DNA of 64,000 bases from positions 28,322,001 through 28,386,000 of the forward strand of contig NC_092674.1 in assembly GCF_964355755.1 (NCBI RefSeq). Reading direction: 5' to 3'. This document shows, piece after piece, positions 468-35,827 of the stretch (positions within the stretch are counted from its first letter, which is position 1; every line of letters starts with the position of its first letter). The stretch is from Antedon mediterranea. Its lineage: Eukaryota > Echinodermata > Crinoidea > Comatulida > Antedonidae. The translations under genes were made by a program, and so were the position numbers. The notes under the pieces are model-generated. The model made no database searches. It saw only the letters and a list, made by a program, of their open reading frames with translations, and was not told the DNA's origin.

Positions 468-3400
468 ATGTCGATGGAAGTATACGCTAGAAGCCGCCGC
501 AAACGGTTAAAGTATAAATCTGAACCGAAGATACTACCATCCGATAATGGGAGCAGCGAGTTAAACTGTAAAAATGCAAACGTAAATATTTAGTATTGTT
601 TAGGCCTTAGTATTTCTGGTTGTTGTTGACGGAATGGCACGTTAAATAAGTAACACTACGGCTGCATATTACTGTTATTTTTTTTTCATTACAGGCAAAG
701 ATAAAGTTCATCAAAGCCGTAAAGGTCGTCATATGTTTAGTAAAGTTTTTCGCAATTATTTTTAAAAAGTAAGTTATGTGTACACTATTAAGCCGTATTG
801 TTAAATAGACCTAGCGTAAAGTGTTAGTATCAATTGATGGTAAATGGAAGATTACTAGTTACACATTTATATATACAAAGTCTGTTTTTTTACAGGAAGT
901 CAAATGGGATATAAACGAAAGAGAACAATTTTATTCAACAAACTAGTCAACTAAAAAGTGTTAAAATTTTGTTTTTTTAGAACTAAGAACCAACCAAAGG
1001 AGACAATGTCCTTTACTGAGATTGCGCAGAACTTAGAATCAGACACAATGAAATACTCAGGTCTGTCGTTTGACCCCAGAATGTACAAAGCAAAACGAGA
1101 GGTATGTCAGCAATATTTTAAAAAACTGGTAACAAATTCGGAAGTGTATTTAACAGATTTTTCATAAATTATAAACGTTATAATAGACTAATCAATACTG
1201 AATCCTGCTTGGTTTAAAGGCGTAAATGAACCCCAAGCGAGTTGAACAATCACAAGCGACAGCGTTACTTCCAAAATATTATATCACCCACCCAAATACC
1301 AGATCCAAAAACAAAAAAAACCACTCTCAAACTTAGCTAAATTTATTCATGAAATTTGTATTTGTGTTAGTTAGATGTTGCTTTTCGATATATCAATTAT
1401 GTATAAGATCAAATATTTATGTCTGGAAGTGTTTAGTTATTTGTTTTTTTTATAAGATTGAAAGAATGTTCTTTCATACCCTGAAAAAGGGTCGATAAAG
1501 ATATAAAGGAATCATTGTCATTGTCATTGTCCATCGCGTCGTGTGATTGGTCAAATTACTTGCGTTGCGCTTACGTCCTAGTGGGAATCAAGAATATTAT
1601 TAATTATTTCGTAACATTTTGTATTTTGTTAGATAAATCTTAGTAATGATGTGAAGAACGTTCTTACTGTTCCAAGTGTTTATAGATCAACAGAGCAATT
1701 ACAAACGGTAAGAATTACACAATTACACCACTTTGACCAAAAATTGGATCTTAAACAAAAATTATTTACATGAAAAAACTGTAATTTAAAGCAAAAAATT
1801 GTCAAATTGGCTGCCAACCAAAAGATTTTTGATTGAATTTAACCATTTATTATGTTATTTTATAAGTGAAAATATTATTTTGTTAATCTTTTTTCTACGG
1901 AAGTGATTAACTTTATTAAAACTACAAAATAACCTAATCAAAGTATGATTTAAATAATTTAAATTTTTCATGTTTTTGGGGGACAATACATCTTTAATAG
2001 AGGTTGGTAGTGTTAAAACATAATATATACCCCCTTTGTCTGTTTCTGAGAAAGTGTTTTCTTAATAGGGTTCCCAATGGTGTCTAGGAACTCAGATCTA
2101 GAAAACTCTGATTTTCTAGACACCCGGTTCTCAATGGAGGGGTTCCATTGTAATAGGTGGTAATTCACTAATTTACAATTATAAAGAAACCAGTTTAATA
2201 AATTCGTATTTATATGCGCATTCAAATTTTAGTAAAACAATTTAGCCGAAAATATAGCCTCAAAAGTATAGGCCTTTCACGATTTTGCTGTTCTTTTAGG
2301 CACTTTATGGCTTACAAACAATGAAATCGTTTGCCGAGTATCCACTACATATGCAAGAAAAACTGGTAAAAGTGGCATGGTTTGAAAGGTAAGGATTTGA
2401 ACTTGCTTATATTATAAATTATTAGTAATGTAACTAGAAAAGATACCTCCCCACTCCCCCAACCTACCTATGAGCGATTTTAAAGGAGCAAATTCAATAT
2501 TGCAACAAGGTAAGCATTGTTGAATTTATTACAATAAAGATAGCAAATAATAAAATAAAGAAAATAAAAAAACAGCACTATGAGCACTATACATTGTTTA
2601 AGTTATTAAAAATTATCTGTTGATAATTTTTTTTTCATTTCAAATTTGGGGTTTTTAGTGTACGGTATTACATCACGTGTTCTTTTATTATTTTTACAGC
2701 GTACCTGCAAACAGGGTTATTATTCGACAAGGGCATTACGCTGAGAACTTTTACTTTATCATTTCTGGATCAGGTATAGAACACTCAATCAGTCAATAAC
2801 GATTAATAACTATGGTTAACATGATTAATTAACAGCTCTGAGACTTTCCTCAGTGCTCCCTTTTTATGTTTCACTGAAAGGAATAAATAAATAAAATAAT
2901 AATACCAAATATTGACCGGTTATGCGAAAGGACATTATAGAAAGTACATACGCATTACTTCTCATAGACCGCTTACTATTTATAGTCAATAAAGTCAAAA
3001 TCATAATATAGGAGCTATAGTAAATAGTGTTAGTGATCGTCAAACAAACGAAACTTTCAATATTTATTCCGCTGAGATTGATGAATAACTTGGCTGTCAC
3101 CTATCGATCTATCACACATCCATCACACAAAGGAAAGGTGTAAAGCTAAACTCGTTTAAGCGGCAGTGAGCAGGATAAATACAATGTCAATTGTAAACAT
3201 AGAAACCGAGGCGGTAATGTCTTAATTGTCGTTTTCCCCCAAGAGCTGGGAAAGAGCGTGACCCCATGGTTTTAAAAATATAATTTAAGCGAAGGACCTA
3301 AAGGTTAGTTCTTTCATATATAAACATATTGAATGACAACATATTATGTTGCCATTCAATATGCTTAAATATTGAATTCCTACACATTAAAATATTCGAA

Positions 3401-6400
3401 TAACACAATTTTTTTTTATAATTGTTACATTACACTGTATTATTCTATCTTTAAGAAGGTTGGATTCGCCACTTAAAATATTTGTTAAGGGCATTTGGGC
3501 ATAGATCTGCTCACAGCAGTCACATACAGTACCATTCATGAAATCATCTACCCTTGCGCACGTACTGTCCGCAGAAAAAGCGTGTGTCAATATAACATTC
3601 CGCGATGGATCGATTACGTAACTTACTGTTTAGAATAGCAGCTACTTCCTGCTAAATTTCTAATAATAATATATACTCTTTACCTCCTTTTCAGTAATTG
3701 TTACAATATTAGAACAGAACCACACGACGGGTGAAGCAAGTCTCCGAACTGCTGCTGTTTTAAGGAAGGGTAGCTCCTTTGGAGAGCTAGCGTTACTGCA
3801 CCATTCAAAGCGCACCGCTACGGTATCGAGCCAGGGAGCCGTCGAGTTGTTAGCAATTGGCAGGGACGACTTTTTTAGGATTTTTATGAGAGGGCAAAAA
3901 CCCGGCGAAGAACCCGAACACATTAAATTCTTAAGGTCAGAAATTAAAAATATCTTCAAAGCATATTTAAAATATTGTACTTACTGATTATATAACTGTA
4001 TTCGTATTATTATTTCGAAATAATCAATGCGACTACTGACTTATAAAAAACTAGAATGCGCATGCGTAATTGTTTTCTAAAGTTTAAAAAAAACGCATAA
4101 AATAATGGCTGCAATTTCGTAAATTAAACAAGAAAAAGCATAAACACAATAGCAAGTATTTTTTAAATATTTTTTTTTAAATTTACACGTAATTTGGATG
4201 AATGAATGATACAAAAATATCACTACCAAAGTTTATTTATTTTGTTTATTTTTATTTAAAGATATATTGTCCCCCTAAAAAAATATTAAAAAAAATTTTT
4301 TTTTGAATATGTTATTTTAATGTCACATAATAGTTATTCACTCTCACAAAAAATTTTTTCTTATGGAAGTGAACAACTTCATTAAAACTGCAAAATGGCC
4401 TATTCAAAGTCCGATTTTAAAAATCTTTATTTTTCATGATTTTGGGGGACAATACATCTTTAAATAAAAATAATTATTATATTTTGTGTTTGGTTCTCAG
4501 ACCGTTACCTTTTATGAAAGAATGGCCAACGGAAACATTGATAGAGCACCCTGAAATGTGCTTATTTCACTTTTACAAGTAAGTAAAGAAATATATAAAT
4601 ACTCATGTAGAAATTATACATTTCGGAAACACGCCGAACGTTTTGCAAGAGAGCTTTTTCAACTGAAGTTTATCTTAATTTTATTATGCTGTCGGTCGGA
4701 AGTTCGGCAACATTTCGGTGTCAATCAAAGAAATACAAAAGTAGGGAAAGCTCTCGAAAAAAACGGTAAAAGCACCAGCTGATTAATCTTAATCTGTAAA
4801 CATTTTTGTTTAAAACGTCATCATTACATCCTTTCCGAAGCTCATTTTTTTCCCCGAAATATTTAATTTCTGTAGACGTGGACAAGTTATTGTAAAAGAT
4901 AGCAACTCATCCGATTGGATTTACATTGTAAAATCGGTAAGTTGTAACAATTAAAACCCAAGTAATTTTGTTGATGTTCGTATAAGGAGATAAAATAAGC
5001 AACAATTATTGTAATGTTTTAGGGCATACCGTTAAAACTTAGTTCACACTAGGACGCAACGCAAGACGTAAGCGAAAAATATTTGACCAATCACGACGCG
5101 ATGGATTATCCGAATTGTCGCGTGTCGTTGGTCAATTCGCCTGCGTTGCGTGTACGCTCGTTCGCCGCGTCCAATGTAAATCGGGCTTAAGAATTTCTAG
5201 TTGTTTGTTTTGCAGGGCCGCGATGGACTATCCGAATTGTCGCGTGTCATTGGTCAATTCGCCTGCGTTGCGTGTACGCTCCGTTCGCCGTGTCCAATGT
5301 AAATCGGGCTTAAGAATTTCTAATTGTTTGTTTTACAGGGCAGTTGCCAAGTAATGAAACAACTCAAAGCTGTGAAACCAAAGATGCAACCATTAGAAAA
5401 GAAGAAGATTTCGTTACCAAAGATTCGAGATGATTTACAAAGTAAGGCTCTACATTACACAATACATATTAAATTATGTTATACAATATTGTTGTTGAGA
5501 AGCAACAGACTACCATACGTTAGTTATAGATACAATTTCAGTAAACAGCAAAACTCTATTACGGGGATACCTTCGATACGAAGTGTTCACTTATAAGAGC
5601 TGTCCCATGAATAAAGTAATGTATCGAAGAATCATTCGTTTCGCTGGAAATTGTCCTCTGAATAGGGGTGTACTCGGAGGTGTTCCCTGGAGGAGGAGGA
5701 TGAGTTATACTTCTACTTAGAAAATTTGGGCAATATTGAATCACGTAAAAAAACAACGATATAGGTCAATGATATAGTACAATAATCCAAAATCATTTCA
5801 GGATGCAATCTAGGAGTGTTAGTAGGCCTAATAACATACGGTGCACATCCCGTCTATATCCGATCAATGTGCAGCCACTTGACTTAAATCCGTCCGGGTG
5901 TCATCCGATTTGATACCATGCAAGCAAAGTGCGCTCGCTCTTCCAAAAGCGTGGTTCCCACTAGAACGCAACGCAACGAGGTATTGACGCAACGTGCTGT
6001 ATTGCGTAATCAGAAGTGGGAACCGACGACGCAACAGTGCTGCAAAAATCGCAGGTTTGATTTCACGTGGGCGGGGGCAAACACAATTATTAGAAGGGCA
6101 TTTTCTTCCGTTGCGTAGGTTGCGTTACGATTCGTCGCTAGTGCGAACCAAGCTTAAGTGAGGTACGTAGATCCTGCACAGCTTGGAAATAAATTTAAAT
6201 ATGTATATCTGAAAATTTTACTATGTTGTTTTACAGGTACATCGAGTACAGATGACATACCGGTGAATGCAACACGCACAAAGCTAAGATTTGACCGAGA
6301 CCACACTATACACAATTTACCAAGACCATCAATTGCAGAAAGCGACACAACCAGCGTAAGTGTTCATAATTAGGTTTATCGCAAATAGCGTGCGCGACGC

Positions 6401-8814
6401 ATGGTGGGAAGGGTTTGGGAGCAAACGTCACAACGAGTATGTCCGTGATTTGTTGTTTGTACGTACGCGTCGTGACGTTTGCTCCCAAACCTTCCCATCA
6501 TGCATTGTGCAATGAAGTTCCTCGGTAAACCACGCTATTTTTGATAAATCTTCATAAGGTAGTGGTCTGATAATACTAAAAAAATATTATGAAAAAAATC
6601 AATGACAATTATAACATCGTTTCTTTTCTAGATTTTTGATGATTTCAAAATACCTCACGATGTGTTTTTGACGCGATCTAAAACGGTAGAAAACATGTCT
6701 TATAACCAGTTTGACTCAAATAATAACATAGTTCCGAAGTTAGACCCAATGCGAGGGATTAGACCGACAAATAAATCGTATTCTAAGAGCAACTTTCACC
6801 TAAACAAGACGTTGCCAGGCGATGTAAGTATAGGTGAAGAAAACCACCAATAAATAATGAAATCCCCCAACAACGACGAGCTTAGAGTGTGACAACATCG
6901 TCGAAAAGATACTGTATCTTAGCACACGATACTGTACGAAAACCGAGCTTTCGTTTTAGGACGGCAGACGAAGAAGACGGCTGTGTAAAGTGGACGTAAT
7001 ACGTGTTGTCTTCTTCATCTGCCGTTCCGAAAGAAAACGAATGCCCGCTATTTAAGGATGACATGAACATGAAACAAACTCAGAAATCAAACTTTGTATA
7101 AAATACGATGTGCCAATAATATGGACCCGATGCCATACCATATTTGGTCATATCACTAGTCTGATAGTGTAAACAGAGGTTAAGAACAAATGCTATCAAG
7201 AAGGTCATGTCAGGCCTACATTGATAAGATAATACAGGAGGGGAATGGGCGTACGTTACAATACAATACATCACTTGTTAACCATTTGTTATGCTCGTCG
7301 TTGTTAACAGAATCTAAATGTTCGTTATAATAAATATACTGATCTGATTGGTCAATAGTCGTGTAGACTATTCCATTTTTGATTTTACACCAGTACGGTA
7401 CGAAGGAACACCAAGGGTATTATTCTTACTGTTACTTATATCAATCCACTGATCTGATTGGTCAATAGTCGTGTCGACTATTCCATTTTTGATTTTACAC
7501 CAGTACGGTATAAAGGAACATCAAGGCCTTTATTCTTACTGTTACTTATATAAACCCACTGATCTGATTGGTCAATAGTCGTGTAGACTATTCCATTTTT
7601 TATTTTACACCAGTACGGTATAAAGGAACACTAAGGCCTTTATTCTTACTGTTACTTATATAAACCCACTGATCTGATTGGTCAATAGTTGTGTCGACTA
7701 TTCCATTTCTGGTTTTACACCAGTACGGTATAAAGGAACATCATCAAGGCCTTTATTCTTACTGTTACTTATATAAATCCACTGATCTGATTGGTTAATA
7801 GTCGTGTCGACTTTTCCATTTCAGATTTTACACTAGTACGGTACGGAACACCAATATTATTTATACTGTTATAATACATCATTGGGATATTCGTCTTTGT
7901 TATTTTAGATGGACACAGGGTATATCAGAATATTAGAAAACAAATCAAAACCGTGTAACTCAGCAAGCGGTAAATTAGGTGTCGTCGTATTCGTGCACAT
8001 AGAGACTCTTCAGAGAAAAGATGTGTTTGTGAGTATTATTTCATATACATATATACATTTTTTCATACAACTAAAAAATACGGAACTTTCGCCGACGCGA
8101 TCATGTTCCGAATATGAGCACTGTTTCTATAACTTGACAGTATTATTTATATACATAATTATATACATTAAATGTCAACGGCAAGTACGTCAAACCAAGG
8201 AAGAGGTAATTTTACTCTTCTCTGATAACACATAACAAACTTGTCTTTATACAATATATTGGAATTTTGGTATTTGCAGGGAAATCATTTGTACAAACAG
8301 AAACTTATCAAGTGCGTGTTATTTCCATTAATAGAATATCGCTCATTTTTTTCATTTATAATAAGTCTCTTATAATATATTTTTTAGGGATTATCAACAA
8401 TCAGGCAAGAATTATTACACCCGCAGACTGGAGTAAGTCTCGTAAGTATTAGACTAAGGCTATACATCCATCCACTATTGGAGAGATGACGTAATGCATC
8501 ATTTACATAAATTCTAGGTCCTAGCAAATCCAACGCTTCCCATGCATTGGCTCATCACGTTTTCTTCTCTCTCATCCATCCAGGTCAGTAGAGGAGCCGA
8601 ATGTGTGATGATAAACAAAGAGTTCTTTATAAAACATGCAAGCGAACGGGTTCTCAGGAACATCAGGAGCATATGTAACCCGTATCCTTCTTCAAGAAGA
8701 CTCCAAAAACGTTTAGAACATCACGCTGTGTGGAACGAATTTAAAAACGAAGCTGTTGTCTCAATAATTCAAGACAAACGAAGAATGCGAGAACATACAA
8801 CAATTCATAAATAA
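468..8814 (+). CDS. CNBD2-like: CNBD2-like cyclic nucleotide-binding domain protein, gene 1 (15 exons, 581 aa)
   Basis: Exons: 468-581, 695-768, 981-1101, 1633-1707, 2300-2388, 2700-2773, 3695-3935, 4501-4578, 4876-4936, 5339-5441, 6237-6355, 6632-6823, 7909-8028, 8388-8441, 8584-8814. All junctions are GT-AG, phases agree throughout, and the sum is 1746 nt with a TAA stop, close to the length of vertebrate CNBD2. A hydrophobic/basic segment occupies residues 39-62. CNBD 1 spans about 145-262: RVIIRQGH from residue 163, then the phosphate-binding cassette FGELALLHHSKRTATV with Glu213 and Arg222, the pair that contacts cyclic-nucleotide phosphate in PKA-type domains. A second, degenerate CNBD (GQVIVKD, WIYIVKSGSC, then DVFGLSTI and VSRGAECVMINKEFF) is split by a linker of about 160 residues and lacks that Glu/Arg pair. 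Vertebrate CNBD2 is linked to spermatogenesis; a role here is inferred. The first exon is the least certain, but the paralogue at 9192-16656 also has a 114-nt phase-0 first exon. Confidence 0.88.
1200..1600. repeat. Degraded MITE of the GCTTGGTTCCCACTAG family in intron 3
   Basis: GCTTGGTTTAAAGGCGTAAATG near 1209 and TTGCGTTGCGCTTACGTCCTAG near 1561-1581 look like the two ends of the family whose clean copies lie at 12333 and 19585, pushed apart by later changes. The segment between them is AT-rich with nothing else recognisable. Confidence 0.4.
1740..2170. repeat. Old repeats in intron 4 (GGGGGACAATACATCTTT family, then an 85-bp-family copy)
   Basis: The first part ends with TTTGGGGGACAATACATCTTT at about 1975-1996, the terminal sequence of a family also seen at 4257-4466, 50388-50717 and 52661-52975. 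It is followed by a single divergent copy (about 1995-2070) of the unit that forms the 85-bp array at 20.6-22.7 kb (GTGTTAAAACATAATAT). The rest is an imperfect hairpin around TCTAGAAAACTCTGATTTTCTAGA. Confidence 0.5.
4255..4466. mobile_element. MITE with ends AAAGATATATTGTCCCCC / GGGGGACAATACATCTTT
   Basis: About 210 bp with inverted terminal repeats of roughly 18 bp and no coding capacity, inside intron 7 of gene 1 and only 35 bp upstream of exon 8. The body is nearly pure A/T. Related copies lie near 1.9, 50.4 and 52.7 kb. Confidence 0.65.
5098..5338 (+). repeat. Tandem duplication (about 122 bp) of MITE fragment plus 3' splice site
   Basis: Two adjacent copies run from GCGATGGATTATCCGAATTG to a pyrimidine-rich acceptor. 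The first ends TTTGTTTTGCAG at 5215 and the second TTTGTTTTACAG at 5338. The second is the working acceptor of exon 10 (starting 5339, continuing the ...VIVKS|GSCQVM... reading). Use of the upstream acceptor would stay in frame at first but meets a TAA after about 28 codons, so it would probably yield a non-productive transcript. The copied material is part of the GCTTGGTTCCCACTAG MITE family. Confidence 0.75.
5945..6156. mobile_element. MITE, GCTTGGTTCCCACTAG family (long subtype)
   Basis: Starts AAAAGCGTGGTTCCCACTAG and ends CGCTAGTGCGAACCAAGCTTA, giving inverted ends of about 20 bp, with repeated GCAACGCAACG motifs and a body containing GGGCATTTTCTTCCGTTGCG. The same subtype recurs at 12516-12702 and 15056-15271. 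It is non-coding and sits in intron 10 of gene 1, about 80 bp before exon 11. Confidence 0.75.
6384..6541. mobile_element. Fold-back element in intron 11
   Basis: The arms AAATAGCGTG...GCATGGTGGGAAGG, GTTTGGGAGCAAACGTCAC and their complement around 6473-6541 pair over most of the length with a short loop near 6440. Its ends are AAATAGCGTG / CACGCTATTT. It is a short non-autonomous element or a simple palindrome and has no ORF of its own. Confidence 0.6.
6880..7190. repeat. Small hairpin and degraded GATAGTGTAGACAGAG MITE in intron 12
   Basis: At about 6950-7040, CGTTTTAGGACGGCAGACGA is complementary to the sequence around TCTGCCGTTCCGAAAGAAAACG. At about 7090-7185 a divergent copy of the MITE common in the TBC1D19 introns ends in CTGATAGTGTAAACAGAGG. 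Confidence 0.45.
7335..7850 (+). repeat. Tandem repeat, about 110 bp x 5, intron 12 of gene 1
   Basis: Five direct copies start with CTGATCTGATTGGTCAATAG near 7339, 7449, 7559, 7669 and 7792. Each contains TTTTACACCAGTACGGTA and ends with TTCTTACTGTTACTTATAT. Divergence between units is a few percent. The array ends about 60 bp before exon 13. Confidence 0.85.
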
Positions 8815-9191: not shown

Positions 9192-12100
9192 TTACCGAGG
9201 AGAGTCGCCTTCCTTAGTTTTAGTTCTAATTTTATCAACTGATTTCATTAACGTAGATTTCTTAAACCGTTCCCATTCGGCGTTGAGATGGAATTGGTGT
9301 TGGAGCACATCTGGGCTAGGATATGGACGTATCTAATATGAAAAAGAAAATACGAAAAAAATACTTGATATAATGAGTAAATAAATGTAGACAGTCTCAT
9401 GAAATGTTGGTTGTGTGTTTGACTCCTGGACGATACCGTACATTGTATATGCGGATAATATAGAGTTAAAGCTATGTTATTGGAAATACGAATTAGGCCT
9501 ACGGTAGTTTTTTCAGATTAGCCGACTTGTTACATTAGCAGACTTGTTACATTAGCCGACTTGACACATTATAGTACTCAATCTGTATGGTGTCTTAACC
9601 TAATCTGTAAAGTGTTGGTTGTGAGTTTGAAATTAAATTATTATACTTGCCTGTGTATGCGGATATAGTGTTCGGACTACGTTACAAAAAATACGAATTT
9701 GTTTTCCCGAGTTCATCCGATTTAGCCGACCGAAGTTTACTGTCATTGTGTCTTAATTTACTCTGTAAAATGTTGGTTGTAAGTTTGACTCTTAAATAAC
9801 ACCGTACATTAAATGTTTATACTTTTCTGTCTATTCGGATATAAGGTTAGAAGGGCTATGTTGCTATAAGAAACACGAATTTGTTTTTCCCGAGTTCATC
9901 CGATTAGCCGACTTATACAGAAGTTTATTAGAAAAAACACACCTTATCGTTTTTTCAATATTGTGTAATGTGCTATCATTGTGTATTAATTTCTCTTAAT
10001 ACTTACCGTTCGTAGATAATGTTCCCGTAGATCATCTGAAAGGTGTTGGATAAAAAATCGCTTAGAGATTAAAATACACTCCGCTCCGTCTGACACAAGC
10101 GCCGAACACAAAGGAACTAGAATATCTTTGAAAATTAATTCCGCCATTCCCTAGCAAATTAAATTGTATTTCAAGTAAAAAATAGCGTCATAGTTTTATA
10201 ACCAATTTTTTATATAACAGTTGTATACTCGAACTATATAAAATATCGCCTCTATTAGTAGAAGGCCTTCAGTATTATTAAATATAGATATGTATTATTT
10301 TTTAATTGCCTTGCATAACTATTATACAGAAGATGAAACATTCTCAATTTAATTTTACATGGTTAAGTTTGGTTCACACTAGGACGTAAACGCAACGCAA
10401 GCGTGTTGACCAGTTCGAATAATCCATCGCTTGTGATTGGTCAAACTTACTTCCGCCGCGTTAAGTCCTTGTGATGCATCTCTTGTGGTGAGAACCAAGC
10501 ATTACCGCAAAGTTATTATTATATATATAGCAAGCTAGTAGTATAATTAAATACTTTCGGGTGGCCAAACAAAGTTTCCGCTGAATAGGGGTTGGCAAAA
10601 GTATTAAAACATATTATTGCCCCTCATTTTTTAGTGTTTCATTAATGGAGGTGTACACTGAATAGGGTTGCATGTACTCAACTTTTTTACTTCCAACTTT
10701 TACCTTATACTATTACTTACAAATATATCACCAACGTTAAGTTTCCCCAACTGGATATAGCAGCTCTGACATATTATATCTTCAGTTGTCCCTAATATGA
10801 AGAAATGGCAACTATAATATTTCAGAAGGCGGTTGTTACGTAACCAACGAAACATCGAGACTTTCTCAAAAACAAACTTTATTTATTTTTTGTACTGCAA
10901 ACTTTAGAACTAGAACGCAACGCAAAGATGTAAGCCGTGACGCGGATTACGTCATTGTGTTGCGTCCTAGTGCAAACTAAGCTTTACTGATAACCCAATA
11001 TTGTACTATATCGTAATCAGAAAATGACTGTAGTACATTTTTTACCAAATTTATTATGATTTCCCACAGAGCAGTCAATACACAAGGACGAGTCCAGACG
11101 TTGTAAAATTCGGCACGAACCCTATGAAACAAAAACAGGTTTTTTTTACCATAAAGGAACAGACAAGTGGTAACGATAGGCGGAAAACAGCGTAGCTTGT
11201 TCCACGTATAATCTGTATCTATCCTGAGCGATAAATGCCCGTCCGCTCCGTGTTGTGTGTAAATGGTCATATGGAATAACATTGATTCTATATTTTTATT
11301 ACCGTTGCCGCTCGTCTGTGTAAAATGGCCGTTATGCTTTTCATTTTAACTTGTTCGCATAATAATGTTCCGTTGTCAACAAAATGACGTTTTTACTTAC
11401 CGATTTGATTACGTACAACCATTTTGAAGCCACGCTGTCGGGTGTGATGATCTTCCCCCGACGAAAGTATGTAAATAAGCAAGTATTTGGTTTTTCGAAA
11501 GGTAGTTTATGAACTGGCCAATCAGAGAGTTGCTGGACAGTACGTAGGAATTCTATTACCTCAGGTGGCTGTTTGGTTTGAACGAAAATCGCCAAGAAAT
11601 CCTATAATTATTATTATAAAATATTAATTGGTTGACATAGAAAACGAGTAACATAAAACTAAGGAAACCACGATATGTAAAACCCTTATTTCCAATATTC
11701 TTTACAAATTATATAGTGGTATATACTAATAATACTTAGTTAAGCGTAACCTCACCTAAAACTAATGATTGAACTGAATAAAATGTGTAACTTAGTAAAG
11801 TATTTATATGTTTTTCTACATACCAAAAACTAATTTCTTCTAAATTTTCTTTTCAAGATAAAGACTTTTGTTTCCGAACCTAACACCTAGCAATTTGTAG
11901 ACTATACTTCTAATATAATTCTTATGGCCAATTTACACAGACAAGCGGTAACGGTAAGTGGAAACCCCGCTCCGCGTTGTCATAATAATATAGATTCTAT
12001 ATTTCTATTACCATTCCCGCTCGTCTGTGTAAATTGGCCTTAAAACTTGGTTCCCATTAAGCGTGGTTCCCACTAGCGACGCAACGCAAGGACGTAACGC

Positions 12101-13164: not shown

Positions 13165-13196
<32 letters not shown>

Positions 13197-18265: not shown

Positions 18266-18269
18266 ACAC

Positions 18270-25200: not shown

Positions 25201-28200
25201 ATAAACCGTAGGTCCAGTGTACACATCTAGCTCGTGTGCACTTTAAAGAACCTAGTACATCTTTCGAGACGAGTAGGGGGTTACCCCGGTGTATTAGTAC
25301 ATCACAGCCACTGATCACCAACTGGGCCCTCTGGGAGACCAGTCTTTGACTAAAGAGGTTACCAAGTATAAATATATATTTCAATCAATCAATCAATCAA
25401 TCAATCAATGTCTTGCTTTTCAACTCTTCAGGAAAGCGATATAATTCGTAACTGCAGACGAACAAGCACAGTAATGACAAAAGACGTCGTAGAGTTATTC
25501 TGCATCCACAGTGAAGTAAGTACAAACAAAATAATGATTAGGCATTATCTCATTATTAAGCTGTAAAGTACAACAACAAAACACTTTATTCACTACGACA
25601 CCTGAACTCAATCGGCGTATTCAATCGCGTTTACATTAAGTATATTGAGTTACACGGTCAATTACGCATTAAAGTTGGTCACGGCAACGCGTTTCATAAT
25701 CGGAGTGAATGCTAAACACTTTAGTTGTCCTCGTGGGGACACTCGGAACTAATACGACTAATCATTTTTAGTAAACAGACCGATAAGCACATCGATTCGT
25801 TAAACAATCCAAGTAATCTTAACACATTAAAATTAAATGCGTCTCAATTCTAACGCGTGTCCTAGTTCTGGGAACGAGTTACGCGTCTGTAAGTGTGTTT
25901 CAATTACTCTTAACCAATATCCTTTTTAATACTCTATGTGTTTGATTTTGTAGGATTACCCGGAAGTGTTTGACACGAAGCTGAACATCACTTCAGAGGA
26001 TGTTATGAATTATGTCAGGTAGGAGGATAAAAATAGAAACGTAATAAAAAAAAATTAAACGATAAAGAACTTCCCTTTGATTGTTGCGCGCGCGCGTTCA
26101 AAGTTGACAATAATCTTACGGCTTTGTATTTAGTCTGACTGATTTGCCATACACATAATATTATTGGAAATTGTGTAAAGCTCTGTCTACACTATCAAAC
26201 TTTATGTGACAAAAAAATGTGATGTGCCCATATATGGACATGATGGTGTCATAACACTGCCACATTTAGGCATAGCACTACCATTATATGGGCACATCAC
26301 ACTTTTTTTGTCAAACTAGTTTGATAGTGTAGAAGGAGCTCAAGTAAATAAAACATGAATATGATTGCGGTTACATCACAAACTATTCAAAAGAAAATTG
26401 AAAAGAATATTTGACAGGACCACAATGGAAAACAGGTTTTTCTTTTACCTGATGGTGTAATCCTAGATAAAAATGTTGTTAATAATAAAAATCTAATGAT
26501 CACATATAATCTATTCGTCCTGGTGACGTTGTCATATCATAGCTCTCATTGTGTCGCACGAATATCACATGTCCCCCACAATTAGCAAAGTAAATTATAA
26601 TCGTTTTGAACAATATTTTATTTTTTATTTTTAGAAAGATACCAGTTTTCAGTGTATGGCCCGGTATTGATAAACTGATGGATTCGCTGTTAAACTGGGG
26701 GATACAGAATTACAGGTTAGAACAGAAAGAAACATAGAACTATTTTTTTCATATGAGAAAGGCCTAGAACCCATATTGTGTCGTTGGTTGTCGCCGAGAA
26801 CTATACTAAAATCCGACAAAATTGTGTCAAGGAATCGATTGAAGAAGCGCGACACAATGAATTACTAGAACCCATATTGTGTCAATGGTTGTTGCCTGGA
26901 ACTACACTAGAATCCGACAAAATGGTGTCAAGGAATCGATTGAAGAAGCGCGTCACCATGTCGTCGCATGCGCACAATACATTACTTGACGTATATAACC
27001 TTAAGGCATCGGAAATCGAAAGCTGACAATGACATTACAGAAAGTACTATCATTGAAAACATTCGTTTTAAACTTTTATTGGCGTGAATTTAGTTTATCT
27101 CAATTTTAAAGTAACGTTACTTAATACTGAGAGTTCTAAAACCGTTTCACAGTTAACAGAAATATTTAGTACGATAAATGTTGATATAAAGTTTGCGGTT
27201 CACCACGTATATTAGTTCTGAAAAGAACAGTTGAGTTTCTCGACGTTTCGATCAATATGCTTTAATCGTCCTCCTGATTGAAACGTCGAGAAACTCAACA
27301 GTTCTTTTCAGAACTCATACACGTGGTGTACCGCAAACTATGTATCAACATTTGATTTCGCCATGCAAACCTTAAAACAATTTAACACGATAAAGCAAAC
27401 ATCTGTTAACCGTGTCCAGAATTCACTACAGAAAGCACTGTATAAAGGCCAATTTACACACAGCGGTCGAGCGGTAACGGTAAGCGGAAAACCGCATATC
27501 TATCCTGAGTGGAAACCGTCTGTCCGCTCCGCGTTGTGTGTAAATAGTCATAAGGAATAACATAGATTCTATATTTTTAACCGTTACCCTCGTCTGTGTG
27601 AATTGGCCTTAAATATATGGGTTTTCCGACATCCTAGTCTCTAAGGCGTGGTTCTCACTAGAGGACGCAACGCAAGTACGTACGCGCAACGCAAGTGGAC
27701 CAGTGATAAGCTACTGTTCGAATAATCCATCGCTTGTTATTGGTCAAATTACTTACGTTGCGTTACATCCTTGCGTTGCGTCGCTAGTGGGAACCAAGCT
27801 TTAAAGTAGACATAATATCTTGATATAAGAGCATATATTATATAGGCCTAGGCCTTATTATGTAACGTAATGCGAGTGCTAGAAAATTCCAATTTCATTT
27901 CTTTTAAAGGGCAGGGCAACTGATCGTAAAAGACAGTGAAAATAACGACTGGATATACATCATCAAATCGGTAAGAAGCAACGAAATAAAAAAAGAAATT
28001 TCTAGATTATCTAAAAATACAATGTTTATATCCGCAGCCAAATTATTGTCTTATTTTTCTCCTCCGACTTTTAACGTCTAATTTTTACTTCTTTTTTAAC
28101 ATTATTTTTTTTTCTTGTTTTTCATTTTCAATTTACCGTTCTAGTTTTTTCACGCTGCTGCTCTAGCCCGCTACGTCACACGAGATGACTCATTCATTAG

Positions 28201-31200
28201 ATGAAATCAAGCAGCTTTATAGTACTACACTTTGACATTTTTGTTAAAATGGAAACTCCACTAATTTATTGGTACCACCTGTTGAATCCAAAAACGGCTG
28301 AGAAAAGAGTCTAACGACAAATCCCAAAGCATTCTGGTATTTATGAGTCCCATGATATAATTCGCTGTCAGATAATCATTGAATTATTATCAAAACAGTC
28401 CATTGAAGTTTTTGTTTGTAATAGGATACTTGAAGTGACCCCCAGACTTGACCTTAGCAATAACAATAAGCGAGCAGCGTTTTTTGTAAGAAATATTCTT
28501 GTCATATAATAATTTTACGAATACCTATATCTGAAAAAATCAACTGAACAGTATTATTTTCAAACTCAACGGTAAATAATTTATTGTAATCCAATCCAAT
28601 TCCCACAATTTATACACGTTTCGATTCGCAAGAAAACAAACGATAAATAAAATGATCTAGTCCATCAGAAAGAGCCTGAAACCCTGATAGAGATTTACTT
28701 TCCTCATTACGACGGACATTGAAACTTGGTATGATAAAATGATAAACTTATCAAGCTGTCGCAATAATACGTTGAAAGGAACAAATCATGATTAAACATT
28801 CCATTCGCATTATGATCGACAGAATCTATATATAAATTTACGTAAGGGCAAAATTCGGTAAATCGCGCCTTACTTCTAGAATTTTCACTCGATGGTATGT
28901 AAAGTTGGTTCGTACTTTCGGTACTGATTTTAACCGCCTGATGTAACCCTGTTTACTAATTAAATTGAGTTAGATAATTAGTTATTGACGATTAAAACGA
29001 ATTTAGGTTCAACGATTTGCCCCAAATAGGGGTGTTTTCCGATCGTGGTATACACTGTCTAATGGATGTCCATCTTGAAAAATACCCGCCAAAAAAATGC
29101 GAGGAGGCTTCGCATTTTTCTATCTCCTCCTACGATAATTGTTTTTAATAGCTGAAAACCGGTTGAACAGCTAGAGTACACCATCATAATGTTGAAGACA
29201 GGCCGATTTTCTTTAAAAAATACTATTTTGATAGATTTAATATACGATTATACAAATGTATTGATTTGCGATGAATGGAACATCCCAATCTCTCAGTCTG
29301 CCAGAGTTTGGTTTAACACAAGTACTGTAGGTAAATTTATGAGCCCTTGGTTTAACACATACGGTAGGTAAATATATGGGCCCTTTGAGAATAAACTTGC
29401 AATACTTTGACAATACTGTAAATACCTATTAACTATTTTTCATTTGAATCGAACATTTCTTACTGTGAATGTTCGTACTGTTAGATGTAATATAAAAATA
29501 TATACAAATAAACTTTATTACTGAGACTGTGGATAGGCTCTACTGTTAGATATACAAATAAACTTTATACTGACAGTTCCTTCTCAACGTTTGTATTAAT
29601 TAATAATTACCAAAAATATAAACGTCGTAGTGGTGTATCGTGACATGTACTTTAATATTTCAATCGATTATGACAGTGACAGTTTTAACAAAGTATTAAA
29701 TCGCAAATGTTTTAGGCCTACTGTATTTAGAGGTATATTATTTATAGGCCTATAAAACATGAACAAAATATTTCGTTACTCAGTGGATAAAGAATATATT
29801 TAAAAATTATTCCTCTTTGTACCTATCTGCTTTCCCATCCCTCAACCCTAATGTTACATAGCGAGGAGGCTTCGCATTTTCCTATCTCCTCCTACGATAA
29901 TTGTTTTTAATAGCTGAAAACCGGTTGAACAGCTAGAGTACACCATCATAATGTTGAAGACAGGCCGATTTTCTTTAAAAAATACTATTTTGATAGATTG
30001 CTAGAGTACACCATCATAATGTTGAAGACAGGCCAATTTTCTTTAAAAAATACTATTTTGATAGATTTAATATACGATTATACAAATGTATTGATTTGCG
30101 ATGAATGGAACATCCCAATCTCTCAGTCTGCCAGAGTTTGGTTTAACACAAGTACTGTACTGTAGGTAAATTTATGAGCCCTTGGTTTAACACATACGGT
30201 AGGTAAATATATGGGCCCTTTGAGAATAAACTTGCAATAGGTTCGGAAAATGTTAAAAACCAATTTCTATTATTTGAATCGGTAAACAGTTTCCATTTAT
30301 TATACATTGATAATGAAAAATGAAATATTCCTATTTATGTCCCTCGAGGTTCATTACAATTTATATTTAGTAGTCCCACGGACTTCATCTTAGCCACTCC
30401 CCCGAGTGCTAAGGCCAAATTTATGATACCCTACTTTCTATGTAAGTTTATGTGCTTATAAATTAAGACTCATGTAAACAGCTTGATTACATCATTTTAC
30501 AGACAAACGAAACTTTTTTAAACCTACTGTTTCAATAACTGAGTATAAATACTGTATACGTTTTCATAAGTAAGCGCATATACATTTTCGTGCTTTCATT
30601 GACGAGATTGTAATAGTAACTTCAGTAACTATTACAGTACTTATTTATTATACGACACAAGACAATTGTATCTGACATTATTCTAAAAAATAAGTCTAGA
30701 TAGATCCCTTAGGCGTCATAAATCACAGGCCAACAAATCAGTACTCATGACAGAAATTCGACCCAGTTTGGTTCACACAAATGTTTACAGGAATTTCAAC
30801 ACCACAACCGATGATTTGCCCTAAATATTTAGGTAGACTACAGTTTAATTTTTCACTGAATAGGAGCTTGCATTTCCGATTTCCATTTCGCAGAATGTCT
30901 AGGTCTATTTATTTAGTTTGGTTCTTATAATATATAAATACAATCAACTTTATTACTGCGGTTCCATCACCACCACCACGTGCCGCCCAATTCCCGTACA
31001 TACATTTCCATTTCTCCCTAATTTCTTTAATCCACATAAATTAATTGTCCTTTATGAAATCCAGTATTGGTTTTGTTGTCTCTATTTCTGAATACCCCAA
31101 TTAGGGGGACACTTCCGTTTTTGTTTAGTGTCCCAAAAAAGTCCCCGTCCGTGGATTCTACTGTATTCGAGAACCATCTGTGAGCACCCCTAGATGGTAC

Positions 31201-32185
31201 GCGAGCGAAGCGAGCGTGCCATCTAGTATAACAAATGCCTGCTATTCTAGCTCACCTAAAGAAACGCGTATCACTAAGACGATAGTTTTAATAATCCATC
31301 GCTCTTGGTTGGTAAAATCACTTGCGTTGTGCTTACGTCCTTGCGTTGCGTCCTAGTGGGAACCAAGCTTTACGTGTTTACGATATTAGCTTAAAACCAA
31401 TTTCTTTTTGTCAGTGGTCAATTCGCATGCTTAAACATATATGTTACAATATTTAAACTAACGCAAGGGCGTAAGCGCAAAGTGATTTGACCAACCACAA
31501 GCGATGGATTACTGTGGCTTGTCAGTGGTCAATTCGCATGCTTAAACATATATGTTACAATATTTAAATTCTTTGTTTAAACAATAAAAAAGACATAATA
31601 TTAACTTACCTAAAAACTAACGCGAATCGAGCACAAGAAATTGGTTTTAAGCTAATATCGTAAACACGTAAAGCTTGGTTCCCACTAGGACGCAACGCAA
31701 GGACGTAAGCACAACGCAAGTGATTTTACCAACCAAGAGCGATGGATTATTAAAACTATCGTTTGGCATTGATAAATTTGCTTGCGTTGCGTCTACGTCT
31801 TTGCGTTGCATCTCTAGTGAGAACCATGCTTAAACATATTGGAATTTGTTTACTCAACAGGGAAAATGTGACGTATTGAAAAAGCTAACACCGGGAGTGT
31901 GCACTTTAGATGAGAGCAGAAAGTTCTACAAACGATACAAAAAAGCGCAAAGTGCTCTAGCAATGCAAAGGATGCATGAACAACAAAGCAAAATTATGAA
32001 TAAAAAGTCAGAATCTAAAGGTAAAATATTGTATATTTTAATGATCTGATTTACTGTGTACTTGTATATATTATATTGCTGTTATAGAGTCTTTTAAATT
32101 TTTACTTTTCACGTTGTTTGCAGAATTATTCAGCCGTTGGCTGCCTTCTGTTTGTACTATTTATGTGTTTTTTATGAATAAATAC

Positions 32186-32271
<86 letters not shown>

Positions 32272-35200
32272 TTACCAATAGCGTACCGAGCAAAGCTTAC
32301 AATCAATTGAATGGTTAATGTTTGATTTTTGTGTGTGTATTTCTTCTTTATAGTTACCTTCCTAACTCTTCCAAACTCGAGTCCAAAAAGAACACCCAAA
32401 ATAGAGGTGATGAATATGGACGAGGAACCTAAATGTGACCGACATCAATACCAAATAGCAAGCAACAATGCGTATGGTGAGGAATCTGAATCTGACCGAC
32501 ATCAATACCAAATAGCAAGCAACAATGCGTATGGTGAGGAATCTGAATCTGACCGACATCAATACCAAATAGCAAGCAACAATGCGTTACTACTGGATAT
32601 GGTATGCGTCATGTTCAATACATAAACTAGGTATAATACTAGAGGTATAAACTACGTATAACCTACATAAACTAGGTATACATAAACTAGGTATAATAAA
32701 CTAGAGGTATAAACTACGTATAACTTACATAAACTAGGTATACATAAACTAGGTATAATAAACTAGAGGTATAAACTACGTATAACTTACATAAACTAGG
32801 TATAAACTAGAGGTGTAAACTAGGTATAACTTACATAAACTAGGTATACATAAACTAGGTATAATAAACTAGAGGTATAAACTACGTATAACCTACATAA
32901 ACTAGGTATAATAAACTAGGTATAATAAACTAGAGGTATAAACTACGTATAACTTACATAAACTAGGTATACATAAACTAGGTATAATAAACTAGAGGTA
33001 TAAACTACGTATAACTTACATAAACTAGGTATAAACTAGAGGTGTAAACTAGGTATAACTTACATAAACTAGGTATACATAAACTAGGTATAATAAACTA
33101 GAGGTAAAAACTACGTATAACTTACATAAACTAGGTATACATAAACTAGGTATAATAAACTAGAGGTATAAACTACGTATAACTTACATAAACTAGGTAT
33201 ACATAAACTAGGTATACATAAACTAGGTATAATAAACTAGAGGTATAAACTACGTATAACTTACATAAACTAGGTATAAACTAGAGGTGTAAACTAGGTA
33301 TAACTTACATAAACTAGGTATACATAAACTAGGTGTAAACCAAATAAAACTTACATAAACTAGGTATAAACTAGAGGCTATATAAACTAGGTATAGATTA
33401 CATAAACTAGGTATAAACTAGGTATTAACTAGATATTACATAAACTAGAGGTATAAACTACGTATAACTTACATAAACTAGATATATTCAACTAGATATT
33501 ACATAAACTAGAGATATAAACAACGTATAACTTACATAAACTAGATATATTCAACTAGATATTACATAAACTAGGTATAAACTAGGAATAACTTATATAA
33601 ACTAGGTATAAACTAGATGTTACATAAACTAGATATAAACTATATGTTACATAAACTAGGTATATAACGCATTATATTTGGTAGCAATTAAATAATAAAA
33701 TGTTTGTCTGGTTTTGTTTAGACAGAAATATCAGAGAAGGAAGTACTGAAGCAATTCGTTCAAGAAGGTAGTTCCATGACCACACCATATTGCGTCCGTG
33801 TTGCTGAGTTGGAGGCCGGTGACGTGTTCGTAAGTACAGTAGTACTATTAGATAATTCTATTAGATCGCATCCTGTCACCAAGTGCCTTATTTGCATAAA
33901 ATTGGCCTAAATATGTACCAAAGGTAACTAAATTTGAAATTAGACAAGCGACCACGCACATTACATTATCGTAATTTGTAAATCTGCGAAATCTCTACTC
34001 GATGAGCTGTTGTATTATTACGAGTGACGCCTAATTTATGTTTAACTTCTTTTTAATTCAGGGTCTTTTGTCGACAATTCCCGGATGCAAAGGATCCCAA
34101 GTTACCTTGGTGAGTATAAAATACCTTCTTAATTGTCTGGCTATTGTGACGATAGTACTCGTAGAATCCCTCCACTAAGAGGACACTTAACGGAGAAACA
34201 AACGAGAGGAAATATCTTATCTTAACTACCAGCCTCATGGAACTTGGATGCAACGCAAGCGCGCAGCAAGTAGTTTTGACCAATCACGACGCGATGGATT
34301 ACCCGAATGTCGCTTGTGATTGGTCAAGTTACTTAAATTGGAATTAAACTTTAGAGGACATTGTTTTGGGGTCTGGAAGGGCTCTACTAGATACCATTAA
34401 TTCGCCACCATTGATATTGTAGTCCATTTTTTATGTCCACATAGCTAACCACAGTTTAGTCACTACGACGTACGTAAAACATTGTTAGTTTGGTTTCACA
34501 CATAATTATATTTTACATATCGATGTAGGTAAGCCAAGGAGCAGAAGCTATTCGTATCAATAAACAATTTTTCCTGAAATTTGCGGATGAAAGAGTATTC
34601 ACACAGATAGAGATGAGGGTAATTATTATCATTGGATTATTTCATAACAAAGACATAATAGCCGGCTATGTTATCTCAATGAAAATGCATTTGTATTGGC
34701 TGCAATAACGACGTAAGCAATACGCACTGGTTATCGATTGTGTGTATGTCGCGTATTGAGTTGAGAAATTCTCCTCTCTTAGTCACATCAATTCGACATG
34801 AAATCCCACCAAATAATAGGCGGCTTCGAATCTCTTTTGGTGTAAATCTCAACCTGTTATATTCTTACATTACACGACTTATTGCATCAACTAGTAATGC
34901 TCAACTTAAATTACATTTCGATTTTAGAATAATGTTCATTTAATTCCATTATGTTGCATGTTACAATGGCCGACTAATATCCAATTAAACTAACGCAAAT
35001 AAACGACGAGGGCTAGAAACGGGGCTTTTAAAGTAATATCGTAAACAAGTATTTTTTTCTAATAGGCTATTATTAATTCGTTATTGTGTTACAATAGTTA
35101 AATTCTTATTTTAAACAATCAAAAATACATATTATCAAATAGATATGATGATGTCATATCACTACCATATCTGGGCATATCACTACCATATTTGGGCACA

Positions 35201-35827
35201 TCAAACTTTTTGGTCAAACTTTTATAGTGTAGACATAGCTGTATAGATATCATTTTTCCTTTGAAATGACGATTATATTCAATTTTTTTTAAACGGCATT
35301 CGCGACATTATTTCTTAGCCAAGAAAATTGGCAAGGATATTGCGAAATAGTTTATTATTACATCTTCTCGAATGCTTATTATTATTTCTTTAAAATAGAT
35401 TTAGAACGAGGCTTTACCTTAGCCAAGAAAATTGCCTCAGCGGCCTTCATACGAGAAAATTGGCAAGGCATATTGCTAAATCGTTTATTAATACAACTGT
35501 ATTTTCCGAATAATGTTGATTATTTCTTTAAATTATATTTTTAGTTCGAGTCTTACCGTAACCAAGAAAATTGCCTTGGTGGCCTTGATATGACAACATT
35601 GGCAACGAATAAGCTAAATCGTTTATCGTTACATTTTTCTCGAATAATGCTTATTATTATTATTTCTTTAAATTATTTTTTAGTACGAGGCTTATCCTAG
35701 CCAAGATGATTGTCTGAGCGTCCTCGATATGACGAGTAAATGGCAAAAATGCAAACGCAACGAGTTCAACAAAACAGTACATGAAGTGCACACAAAGATA
35801 CAGACACGGAAAGACTCAAGAAGATGA
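19224..35827 (+). CDS. CNBD2-like: CNBD2-like cyclic nucleotide-binding domain protein, gene 3 (18 exons, 608 aa)
   Basis: Exons: 19224-19291, 20443-20563, 22806-22876, 23272-23455, 23580-23654, 23762-23850, 24106-24179, 24374-24429, 25432-25515, 25954-26018, 26635-26715, 27910-27970, 31861-32020, 32354-32601, 33722-33829, 34062-34109, 34529-34618, 35684-35827 (TGA). All are GT-AG and phase-consistent, 1827 nt. The first two exons have no homology support and rest on start codon, splice signals and phase; from exon 3 on, the match to genes 1 and 2 is clear (PYQRFRRKA, MTFDASDFQRFSKRE, 75- and 84-nt exons). CNBD 1 starts RVVIKEGYVAEGLYIVLSG. Its cassette reads FGESDIIRNCRRTSTV: Glu247 and Arg256 are kept, but the usual Leu-Ala-Leu is Ser-Asp-Ile and the loop before it is about 11 residues shorter. 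The second CNBD (GQLIVKDS, WIYIIKSGKC, GDVFGLLSTI, VSQGAEAIRINKQFF) lacks the pair. Exon 14 carries a 19-residue repeat. AATAAA at 35828 and 35910 may serve polyadenylation. Confidence 0.85.
19585..19766. mobile_element. MITE, GCTTGGTTCCCACTAG family (full copy)
   Basis: AAGCTTGGTACCCACTAGAA at the left, GCTAGTGGGAACCACGCTTT at the right, 182 bp, nearly identical to the copy at 13486-13667 through AACCAATGACAAGCGAAG. It lies in intron 1 of gene 3. Confidence 0.8.
19797..20102 (+). mobile_element. tRNA-derived SINE
   Basis: The head has pol III promoter boxes: an A-box-like GTGTGGCGCAGTATGTTGG and a B box GGTTCGAATCC near 19853. The body has GTACCGGTTAGTATAAGC and the tail TGCGCTATATAAGAATAAAC plus a short (ATT)n run. 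The tRNA-like part is not a functional tRNA: there is no proper acceptor-stem pairing and it is joined directly to SINE body. It lies in intron 1 of gene 3. Confidence 0.75.
20637..22735 (+). repeat. 85-bp tandem array, about 24 copies
   Basis: Unit: GTGTTAAAACATAATATTTT, CCCTCATTGTTTCATAGAAA, AGTGTCCCCTTAATAGAGGT, GTACCTTGAATAGTGGTCGG, TCGTA. Inner copies are almost identical, with alternating variants (AATAT/TATAT, ATAGAGG/ATATAAG, GGTCG/GGACG). The variants recur in blocks, pointing to expansion by multi-unit duplication. Single divergent copies sit near 2.0, 10.6 and 51.4 kb, so the unit comes from a dispersed repeat. The array fills nearly all of intron 2 of gene 3 (20564-22805). Confidence 0.95.
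24797..24938. mobile_element. MITE, AAAGCTCTGTCTACACTATCAAAC family
   Basis: About 140 bp with left end AAGCTCTTTCTACGGTATCA and right end TTTGATAGTGTCTAGAC, and internal GATGTGCTCATTTATGGACA mirrored by TACCATATTTTGGTACATCA. It is in intron 8 of gene 3. The family is most abundant in the TBC1D19 introns. Confidence 0.75.
25075..25412 (+). mobile_element. tRNA-derived SINE with (CAAT)n tail
   Basis: The head GAGTGGCCGAGCGGTTAAGA is a tRNA-Leu/Ser-like A box and GTGTTCGAGGCTC a B box. The core contains TCTTCTCGGATAAGGACTAT and TGTGCACTTTAAAGAACCTA, and the element ends in a (CAAT)n run at about 25381-25409. A second copy, inverted and 5'-shortened, is at 57092-57389. It sits about 20 bp upstream of exon 9 of gene 3 (25432), so its tail forms part of the sequence before that 3' splice site. 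Confidence 0.8.
26177..26341. mobile_element. MITE, AAAGCTCTGTCTACACTATCAAAC family
   Basis: Left end AAAGCTCTGTCTACACTATC, right end GTTTGATAGTGTAGAAGGAG, with an internal GGACATGATGGTGTCATAAC palindrome. It is in intron 10 of gene 3. Confidence 0.8.
26765..26975 (+). repeat. Two-copy tandem duplication, about 105 bp
   Basis: CTAGAACCCATATTGTGTC, ATCCGACAAAAT and GTGTCAAGGAATCGATTGAA recur at an interval of about 105 bp. An 82-codon open frame crosses both copies, but no splice sites or related protein support it. It lies in intron 11 of gene 3. Confidence 0.7.
27176..27353. mobile_element. 178-bp fold-back element
   Basis: The arms AAATGTTGATATAAAGTTTG...GAGTTTCTCGACGTTTCGAT and their reverse complement pair across almost the whole element, leaving a loop of about 20 bases near 27260. 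Intron 11 of gene 3. Confidence 0.75.
27445..27612. mobile_element. MITE, GGCCAATTTACACAGACGAGCGG family
   Basis: AAGGCCAATTTACACACAGC at the left and CTCGTCTGTGTGAATTGGCC at the right, with an internal TATCCTGAGTGGAAACCG. It lies directly upstream of another MITE at 27643. Confidence 0.75.
27643..27804. mobile_element. MITE, GCTTGGTTCCCACTAG family
   Basis: AAGGCGTGGTTCTCACTAGA at the left, GCTAGTGGGAACCAAGCTTT at the right. It ends about 105 bp before exon 12 of gene 3. Confidence 0.75.
29099..29404 (+). repeat. Intronic segmental duplication, copy 1
   Basis: GCGAGGAGGCTTCGCATTTT to GAGAATAAACTTGCAATA. The copy at 29861-30239 is nearly identical but carries an extra internal tandem duplication. 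No coding potential is supported; the 60-codon frame inside is chance. Intron 12 of gene 3 (27971-31860). Confidence 0.8.
29861..30239 (+). repeat. Intronic segmental duplication, copy 2 (longer)
   Basis: Same sequence as 29099-29404, except that a block of about 68 bp (GCTAGAGTACACCATCATAA onward) is tandemly repeated and ACTGT is doubled near 30155. About 450 bp separates the copies. The rest of this intron (28000-29090, 30240-31250) shows no gene or recognised element. Confidence 0.8.
31191..31225. repeat. 35-bp hairpin
   Basis: TAGATGGTACGCGAGCG is followed after AAG by CGAGCGTGCCATCTA, a stem of about 15 bp with one T/C mismatch. It lies in intron 12 of gene 3; no function can be assigned. 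Confidence 0.6.
31280..31761. repeat. Perfect 127-bp inverted repeat with 228-bp loop
   Basis: The left arm 31280-31406 and right arm 31635-31761 are, as far as I can read, exact reverse complements. Each arm contains one end of the GCTTGGTTCCCACTAG MITE joined to TTTACGATATTAGCTTAAAA. The loop holds two direct copies of TCAATTCGCATGCTTAAACA (near 31421 and 31529). It lies just before exon 13 of gene 3 (31861), so the pre-mRNA could form a long double-stranded stem. Confidence 0.85.
32186..32264. repeat. (TA)n microsatellite
   Basis: About 38 uninterrupted TA dinucleotides in intron 13 of gene 3 (32021-32353). Confidence 0.95.
32440..32590 (+). repeat. In-frame 57-bp tandem repeat inside coding exon 14 of gene 3
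   Basis: Three consecutive copies of a 57-bp unit encode DRHQYQIASNNAYGEESES-like 19-residue repeats; the third is cut after NNA. Because 57 is divisible by three, copy-number changes keep the frame. It falls in the linker that splits the second CNBD, a region very different in length among the three paralogues. Confidence 0.9.
32630..33665 (+). repeat. Minisatellite based on AAACTAGGTATA
   Basis: About 1 kb of short units (ACATAAACTAGGTATA, AATAAACTAGAGGTATAAAC, TACGTATAACTT) arranged in higher-order blocks of about 100-170 bp, more degenerate toward the right end. It occupies most of intron 14 of gene 3 (32602-33721). Confidence 0.92.
34237..34345. mobile_element. Partial MITE, GCTTGGTTCCCACTAG family
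   Basis: GGATGCAACGCAAGCGCGC, TTTTGACCAATCACGACGCG and GTGATTGGTCAAGTTACTT are internal family motifs, but the ends have decayed. In intron 16 of gene 3. Confidence 0.5.
35130..35243. mobile_element. Truncated MITE, GATAGTGTAGACAGAG family
   Basis: GATATGATGATGTCATATCA, two copies of CTACCATATTTGGGCA/CTACCATATCTGGGCA, then TTTTATAGTGTAGACATAGC. The left terminus is missing. Intron 17 of gene 3. Confidence 0.6.
35300..35683 (+). pseudogene. Tandem decayed copies of the terminal exon of gene 3
   Basis: The last exon (from 35684) with its upstream intron sequence was duplicated with a period of about 140 bp. One copy has an acceptor and exon start at 35545 (TTTTTAG then TTCGAG) and reads FESYRNQENCLGGLDMTT, aligned with YEAYPSQDDCLSVLDMTS; it stays open for about 50 codons. 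The copy at 35405 hits a stop after five codons. A third, truncated remnant starts near 35315 (CTTAGCCAAGAAAATTGGCA). Confidence 0.8.

What the first reader, a model, noticed from the sequence alone, without database searches (positions are those of the whole stretch)
468..35827. Three CNBD2-like genes clustered in alternating orientation
Seen: three full-length models (581, 441 and 608 aa) on +, -, + strands with the same order of domains, the same intron phases and identical sizes for some exons (75 nt in all three; 84 nt in two; 61 and 74 nt in two). Known: vertebrates have a single CNBD2, associated with sperm formation. Inference: a local expansion through inverted duplication, possibly lineage-specific, that may have split cyclic-nucleotide sensing among paralogues.
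Basis: partly seen in the sequence, partly recalled or inferred. Interest (0 to 1): 0.65.

Follow-up and report, generated by a model that had tools for sequence, protein, structure and literature searches.

The report
Three old CNBD2-like sperm-sensor gene relatives
Three neighbouring animal genes encode proteins resembling CNBD2, a cAMP-binding protein needed by mouse sperm, but they are old, unequal members of a family of at least twelve genes spread over the genome, not a fresh local triplication.

Summary
All introns are GT-AG and no frame holds a stop. Each encodes two cyclic-nucleotide-binding domains and no effector domain. Domain 1 keeps the cAMP pocket signature (FGE plus Arg, spaced as in mouse CRIS/CNBD2); domain 2 is degenerate.

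The inference (local inverted duplication) is mostly unsupported. The genome holds at least 12 such loci on five contigs. Gene A's closest relative is on another contig (support 99/97), and forcing A, B and C into one clade is rejected (AU p about 0.002-0.004). The equal exon sizes and phases occur family-wide. Synonymous sites are near saturation; identities are 25-39%. An old array that later seeded contig C8 is not excluded ({A,B,C,C8}: p 0.058-0.118).

All three window genes keep pocket residues, so divided sensing is not visible there; some relatives elsewhere have lost the Glu or the Arg. Lineage specificity could not be tested, because no animal database was available.

The parts
468..8814 (+). 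Gene A, CNBD2-like, 15 exons, 581 aa: 468-581, 695-768, 981-1101, 1633-1707, 2300-2388, 2700-2773, 3695-3935, 4501-4578, 4876-4936, 5339-5441, 6237-6355, 6632-6823, 7909-8028, 8388-8441, 8584-8814
   Evidence: open frame, GT-AG junctions, PF00027 E 1.7e-22
3695..3935 (+). Gene A exon 7: cNBD1 pocket, FGELALLHHSKR (Glu and Arg present)
9192..16656 (-). Gene B, CNBD2-like: exons 15382-15318, 14898-14799, 14619-14545, 13780-13689, 12921-12759, 12255-12172, 11601-11401, 11121-11046, 10791-10721, 10150-10007, 9332-9192 (403 aa) plus tentative first exon 16656-16543 (38 aa)
12172..12255 (-). Gene B exon 7 (84 nt): cNBD1 pocket ELALIHHATR; FG lies at the end of exon 6
19224..35827 (+). Gene C, CNBD2-like, 17 exons, 556 aa: 19224-19256 (tentative), 22806-22876, 23272-23455, 23580-23654, 23762-23850, 24106-24179, 24374-24429, 25432-25515, 25954-26018, 26635-26715, 27910-27970, 31861-32020, 32354-32601, 33722-33829, 34062-34109, 34529-34618, 35684-35827
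   Evidence: PF00027 E 7.4e-18
24374..25515 (+). Gene C exons 7-8: cNBD1 pocket FG|ESDIIRNCRR (Glu and Arg present)
4501..8814 (+). Gene A second, degenerate cNBD (exons 8-10 and 13-15, FG followed by L, no Arg) split by a long linker; conserved C-terminus PYPS..W..FK
   Evidence: PF00027 in 7 of 7 family members (gene A 27.1 bits, just under the 27.5 cut-off); PKG matches E 1e-17
20656..22730 (.). 85-bp tandem array, 24.4 copies, in intron 1 of gene C
35371..35733 (+). Two decayed upstream copies of gene C's last exon (period about 139 bp), one with an in-frame stop, one frameshifted, before the intact exon 35684-35827

Best explanation
The three genes are intact, anciently diverged members of a dispersed family of at least 12 CNBD2-like (CRIS-like) genes in this animal genome. 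Each protein has a conserved N-terminal segment, a first cyclic-nucleotide-binding domain that keeps the cAMP pocket signature, a second cyclic-nucleotide-binding domain that has lost its ligand residues and is interrupted by a variable linker, and a conserved C-terminus. The most likely mechanism is that cAMP binds domain 1 and changes the relation between domain 1 and the pseudo-domain 2/C-terminal tail, so that the protein acts as a non-enzymatic cAMP-dependent scaffold in sperm precursors or ciliated cells, as inferred from mouse CRIS. Gene structure, domains, pocket residues and relationships are shown here; cAMP binding, the conformational step and the tissue are inferred.
For: Gene models with GT-AG introns and open frames. 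PF00027 in all three, no channel, kinase or GEF domain. FGE and Arg with the 9-residue spacing of mouse E279-R288 in A, B and C; gene A also has Phe at exactly +39, as F327 (mouse residues from PMC3854790). Second cNBD found in 7 of 7 members and matched to PKG cNBDs, but with FGL/FGM and no Arg. Nine further loci, most with the same exon plan. Tree and AU tests. Near-saturated synonymous divergence (pS 0.73-0.84). Mouse CRIS responds to cAMP but not cGMP by FRET and is needed for spermiogenesis (PMC3854790).
Against: No vertebrate CNBD2 sequence was available, so orthology to CNBD2 is not tested by reciprocal search. The purine-contact Asn330 of mouse is Pro, Thr or Lys in A, B and C. No expression data. 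First exons of B and C are tentative.
Confidence: 0.75

Rival explanations
1. One reading: a local, lineage-specific expansion by inverted duplication that made exactly this trio.
For: Adjacency in +,-,+ order; A and B convergent with stop codons 377 bp apart.
Against: {A,B,C} clade rejected, AU p 0.0017-0.0035; A is sister to C8, 99/97; A and C8 share absence of two introns (columns 259 and 641) that B and C keep; {A,B} alone also rejected at p 0.013-0.038; saturated or nearly saturated synonymous sites.
Confidence: 0.07
2. An old tandem/inverted array on this chromosome gave rise to A, B and C, and a copy of A later moved to contig C8; the other loci are older branches. This is a variant history of the same family, compatible with the best explanation.
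For: {A,B,C,C8} not rejected (p 0.0585, 0.0577, 0.118); intron 611/phase 0 is shared only by A, C and C8; a convergent sister pair on C9 (98/98) shows that inverted duplication happens in this family.
Against: Gene C sits on a long branch and does not group with A and B in the free trees; log-likelihood 4-5 units lower.
Confidence: 0.3
3. The genes belong to another cNBD family (for example orphan PKA-R/PKG relatives or CNBD1), not CNBD2.
For: Sequence matches to solved structures are generic PKA-R and PKG domains; Asn330 is not conserved in A-C.
Against: No kinase, docking or channel domain; FGE-R-F spacing equals mouse CRIS, and relatives C9b and C9c keep the F-x-x-N pair of F327/N330.
Confidence: 0.2

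Closest known systems
CRIS / CNBD2 (mouse; PMC3854790)
   Same: cNBD with FGE + Arg at identical spacing, Phe at the alpha-C position in A and B, no effector domain
   Different: CNBD2 is described as lacking paralogues as a human drug target (PMC7054227), at least 12 loci here; Asn330 replaced in A, B and C; whether mouse CRIS has the degenerate second cNBD was not checked
PKA regulatory subunits and PKG tandem cNBDs
   Same: Two cNBDs in tandem; best matches among solved structures
   Different: No kinase or docking domain; second cNBD lost its ligand residues and carries a long insertion
KCNH-type non-binding CNB homology domains
   Same: A cNBD fold that is not expected to bind ligand (second domain here)
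   Different: No channel domain; first domain retains ligand residues

Membership tests
CNBD2 (CRIS) | cNBD with Phe-Gly-Glu and phosphate-binding Arg | tested here: met
   A, B and C all have FGE and Arg, 9 residues after Glu; mouse F277/G278/E279, R288
CNBD2 (CRIS) | No other functional domain (no kinase, channel, GEF) | tested here: met
   Pfam finds only PF00027 over threshold
CNBD2 (CRIS) | Alpha-C residues Phe327 and Asn330 | tested here: inconclusive
   Phe in A and B, Tyr in C; Asn absent in A-C, present in C9b and C9c
CNBD2 (CRIS) | N-terminal segment upstream of the cNBD | tested here: inconclusive
   Mouse peptide 142-159 (...DFSFWDKKKQGR) has its SF 127 residues before FGE; gene A LSFDPRMYKAKR has it 119 before. 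Resemblance by eye only
CNBD2 (CRIS) | Reciprocal best match / tree position with metazoan CNBD2 | not testable with these tools
CNBD2 (CRIS) | Expression in spermatocytes/spermatids; cAMP binding | not testable with these tools
   Needs RNA-seq and binding assays
Recent local tandem triplication | The three copies are each other's closest relatives | tested here: not met
   AU p 0.0017-0.0035; A sister to C8
Recent local tandem triplication | Low synonymous divergence | tested here: not met
   pS 0.80 (A-B), 0.73 (A-C), 0.76 (B-C): saturated or near it

The most novel reading that the evidence does not exclude
A dispersed set of a dozen CNBD2 paralogues divided cAMP reception in cilia and sperm: some (A, B, C) remained sensors, others (C9a, C5_30490, C5_5357) became non-binding pseudo-sensors or changed ligand, so that this animal uses a graded panel of cAMP receptors where mammals use one.
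Probability: 0.25. Interest if true: 0.5.

Novelty: new member of a known kind. Interest (0 to 1): 0.3.

Why it matters
CNBD2 is usually thought of as one mammalian fertility gene. A genome with at least twelve copies, showing graded loss of pocket residues, would give a natural series for asking which parts of the protein need cAMP. It also warns that equal exon sizes among neighbours can be a family-wide inheritance rather than a sign of local duplication.

Tried and rejected
Literature on multi-copy CNBD2 in invertebrates: nothing found. L025 (C9:15.34 Mb) scored 56 but has a different exon plan, so I left it out as another cNBD family. Further copies within 10 kb on each side of the window and in 36-64 kb: none.

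Full report
1. The observation. I rebuilt the three genes by hand from the sequence. Gene A lies on + (468-8814), has 15 exons, and gives one open frame of 581 aa. Gene C lies on + (19224-35827), has 17 exons, and gives 556 aa. Gene B lies on - (exons 2-12, 15382-9192) and gives 403 aa, or 441 aa with a tentative first exon at 16656-16543. All internal junctions are GT-AG and no frame holds a stop. A home-made spliced profile alignment returns nearly all the same internal exons, with scores of 404-682 against 20-25 for shuffled or reversed DNA.

2. What the proteins are. Pfam finds only the cyclic-nucleotide-binding domain over threshold (E 1.7e-22, 1.5e-20, 7.4e-18). Against solved structures, gene A matches PKA regulatory subunits and PKG. 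The C-terminal half holds a second such domain: 7 of 7 family members match PF00027 at E up to 1 (best 3.6e-8; gene A 4.1e-6, just under the curated cut-off), and the profile matches PKG chains at E 1e-17 (the linker was left out of these queries). The second domain is split by a linker of variable length. It has FGL or FGM in place of FGE in six of the seven members and in all three window genes (FGL in C2 as well), and no Arg in the phosphate-binding cassette. The protein ends in a conserved YP...W motif.

3. The cAMP pocket. Mouse CRIS (CNBD2) uses F277/G278/E279, R288, F327 and N330, responds to cAMP but not cGMP, and is needed for spermiogenesis and normal flagellar bending (PMC3854790). 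A, B and C all keep FGE and the Arg nine residues later. Gene A has Phe exactly 39 residues after the Arg, as in mouse; B has the aligned Phe, C a Tyr. Asn330 is Pro, Thr and Lys in A, B and C, but Asn in two relatives on contig C9. On sequence, all three window genes could still bind a cyclic nucleotide.

4. The family in the genome. Protein searches of the window's own genome (354 Mb, 18 contigs; the window is C5:28322001-28386000) find nine further loci, most with the same exon plan. C9a (C9:5124383-5127990, +) and C9b (C9:5132759-5128981, -) form a convergent pair. C9c is at C9:1820025-1825284 (+) and C8 at C8:25442024-25436514 (-). The others are C2:3068741-3073901 (+), C7:28860645-28857789 (-), C5:29209718-29211694 (+), C5:30491842-30489220 (-) and C5:5359338-5356436 (-). 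Several of these models are partial. C5_29210 and C7 share few introns with the rest, so their place in the family is the least certain. No further copy lies within 10 kb of the window or in 36-64 kb.

5. Was it a local duplication? In maximum-likelihood trees gene A is sister to the C8 gene (99/97; 96/96; 99/98; and 87/90 in the eight-gene tree). A tree in which A, B and C form one clade is rejected (AU p 0.00166, 0.00172, 0.00351); so is {A,B} (0.0129, 0.0198, 0.0376). Introns agree: A and C8 both lack two introns (alignment columns 259 and 641) that B, C and the C9 genes keep. Ten intron positions are shared by six to nine members genome-wide, so the equal exon sizes are inherited from the family's ancestor and say nothing about local duplication. 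Protein identity is 39% A-B, 25% A-C, 26% B-C and 42% A-C8. Synonymous sites are saturated or near it in every pair tested. One alternative survives: an old array on this chromosome that later sent a copy of A to C8 ({A,B,C,C8}, p 0.058-0.118). The C9 pair (98/98, 97/97, 91/93) shows that inverted duplication does occur in this family.

6. How it most likely works. Shown: intact genes, two-domain anatomy, retained pocket residues in domain 1, lost ones in domain 2. Inferred from mouse CRIS: cAMP binding to domain 1 alters its contact with the pseudo-domain and tail, making a cAMP-controlled scaffold during formation of sperm flagella or cilia. CNBD2 was also a hub gene in larval ciliogenesis of an annelid (PMC10380512) and appears in a coral gonad transcriptome (PMC7579821; I read only the table row, not its tissue assignment). 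It has some support across the family: C9a lost the Arg, C5_30490 has FGG, C5_5357 has TDG.

7. Limits. No animal sequence collection was available, so orthology to vertebrate CNBD2 and lineage specificity were not tested. The organism was not identified. No expression data were available here.

Noticed in passing
window 35322-35733: Two decayed copies of gene C's last exon lie directly upstream of the intact one (period about 139 bp), one with a stop, one frameshifted: an exon-level tandem duplication in decay.
   Followed up: partly
window 20656-22730: 85-bp tandem array, 24 copies, 97% alike, in intron 1 of gene C; its unit resembles a stretch near 2001-2084 in a gene A intron.
   Followed up: no
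window 46359-47464: 69-bp array, 16 copies, 98% alike, giving open frames of about 400 and 390 aa on both strands; the unit shares the GGTTCCCACT..GACGCAA motif of the dispersed repeats in this window. Probably not coding.
   Followed up: no
window 32422-32587: 57-bp in-frame repeat (19 aa, 2.9 copies) inside gene C exon 13, in the linker of the second domain: a coding minisatellite.
   Followed up: no
L015/L016 (C9:5124383-5132759): A second convergent pair of CNBD2-like genes, sisters in the tree (98/98), with modelled ends about 1 kb apart: a true inverted pair.
   Followed up: partly
L024 (C5:5356436-5359338): Twelfth family member with TDG in place of FGE, so a likely non-binding first domain.
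   Followed up: partly
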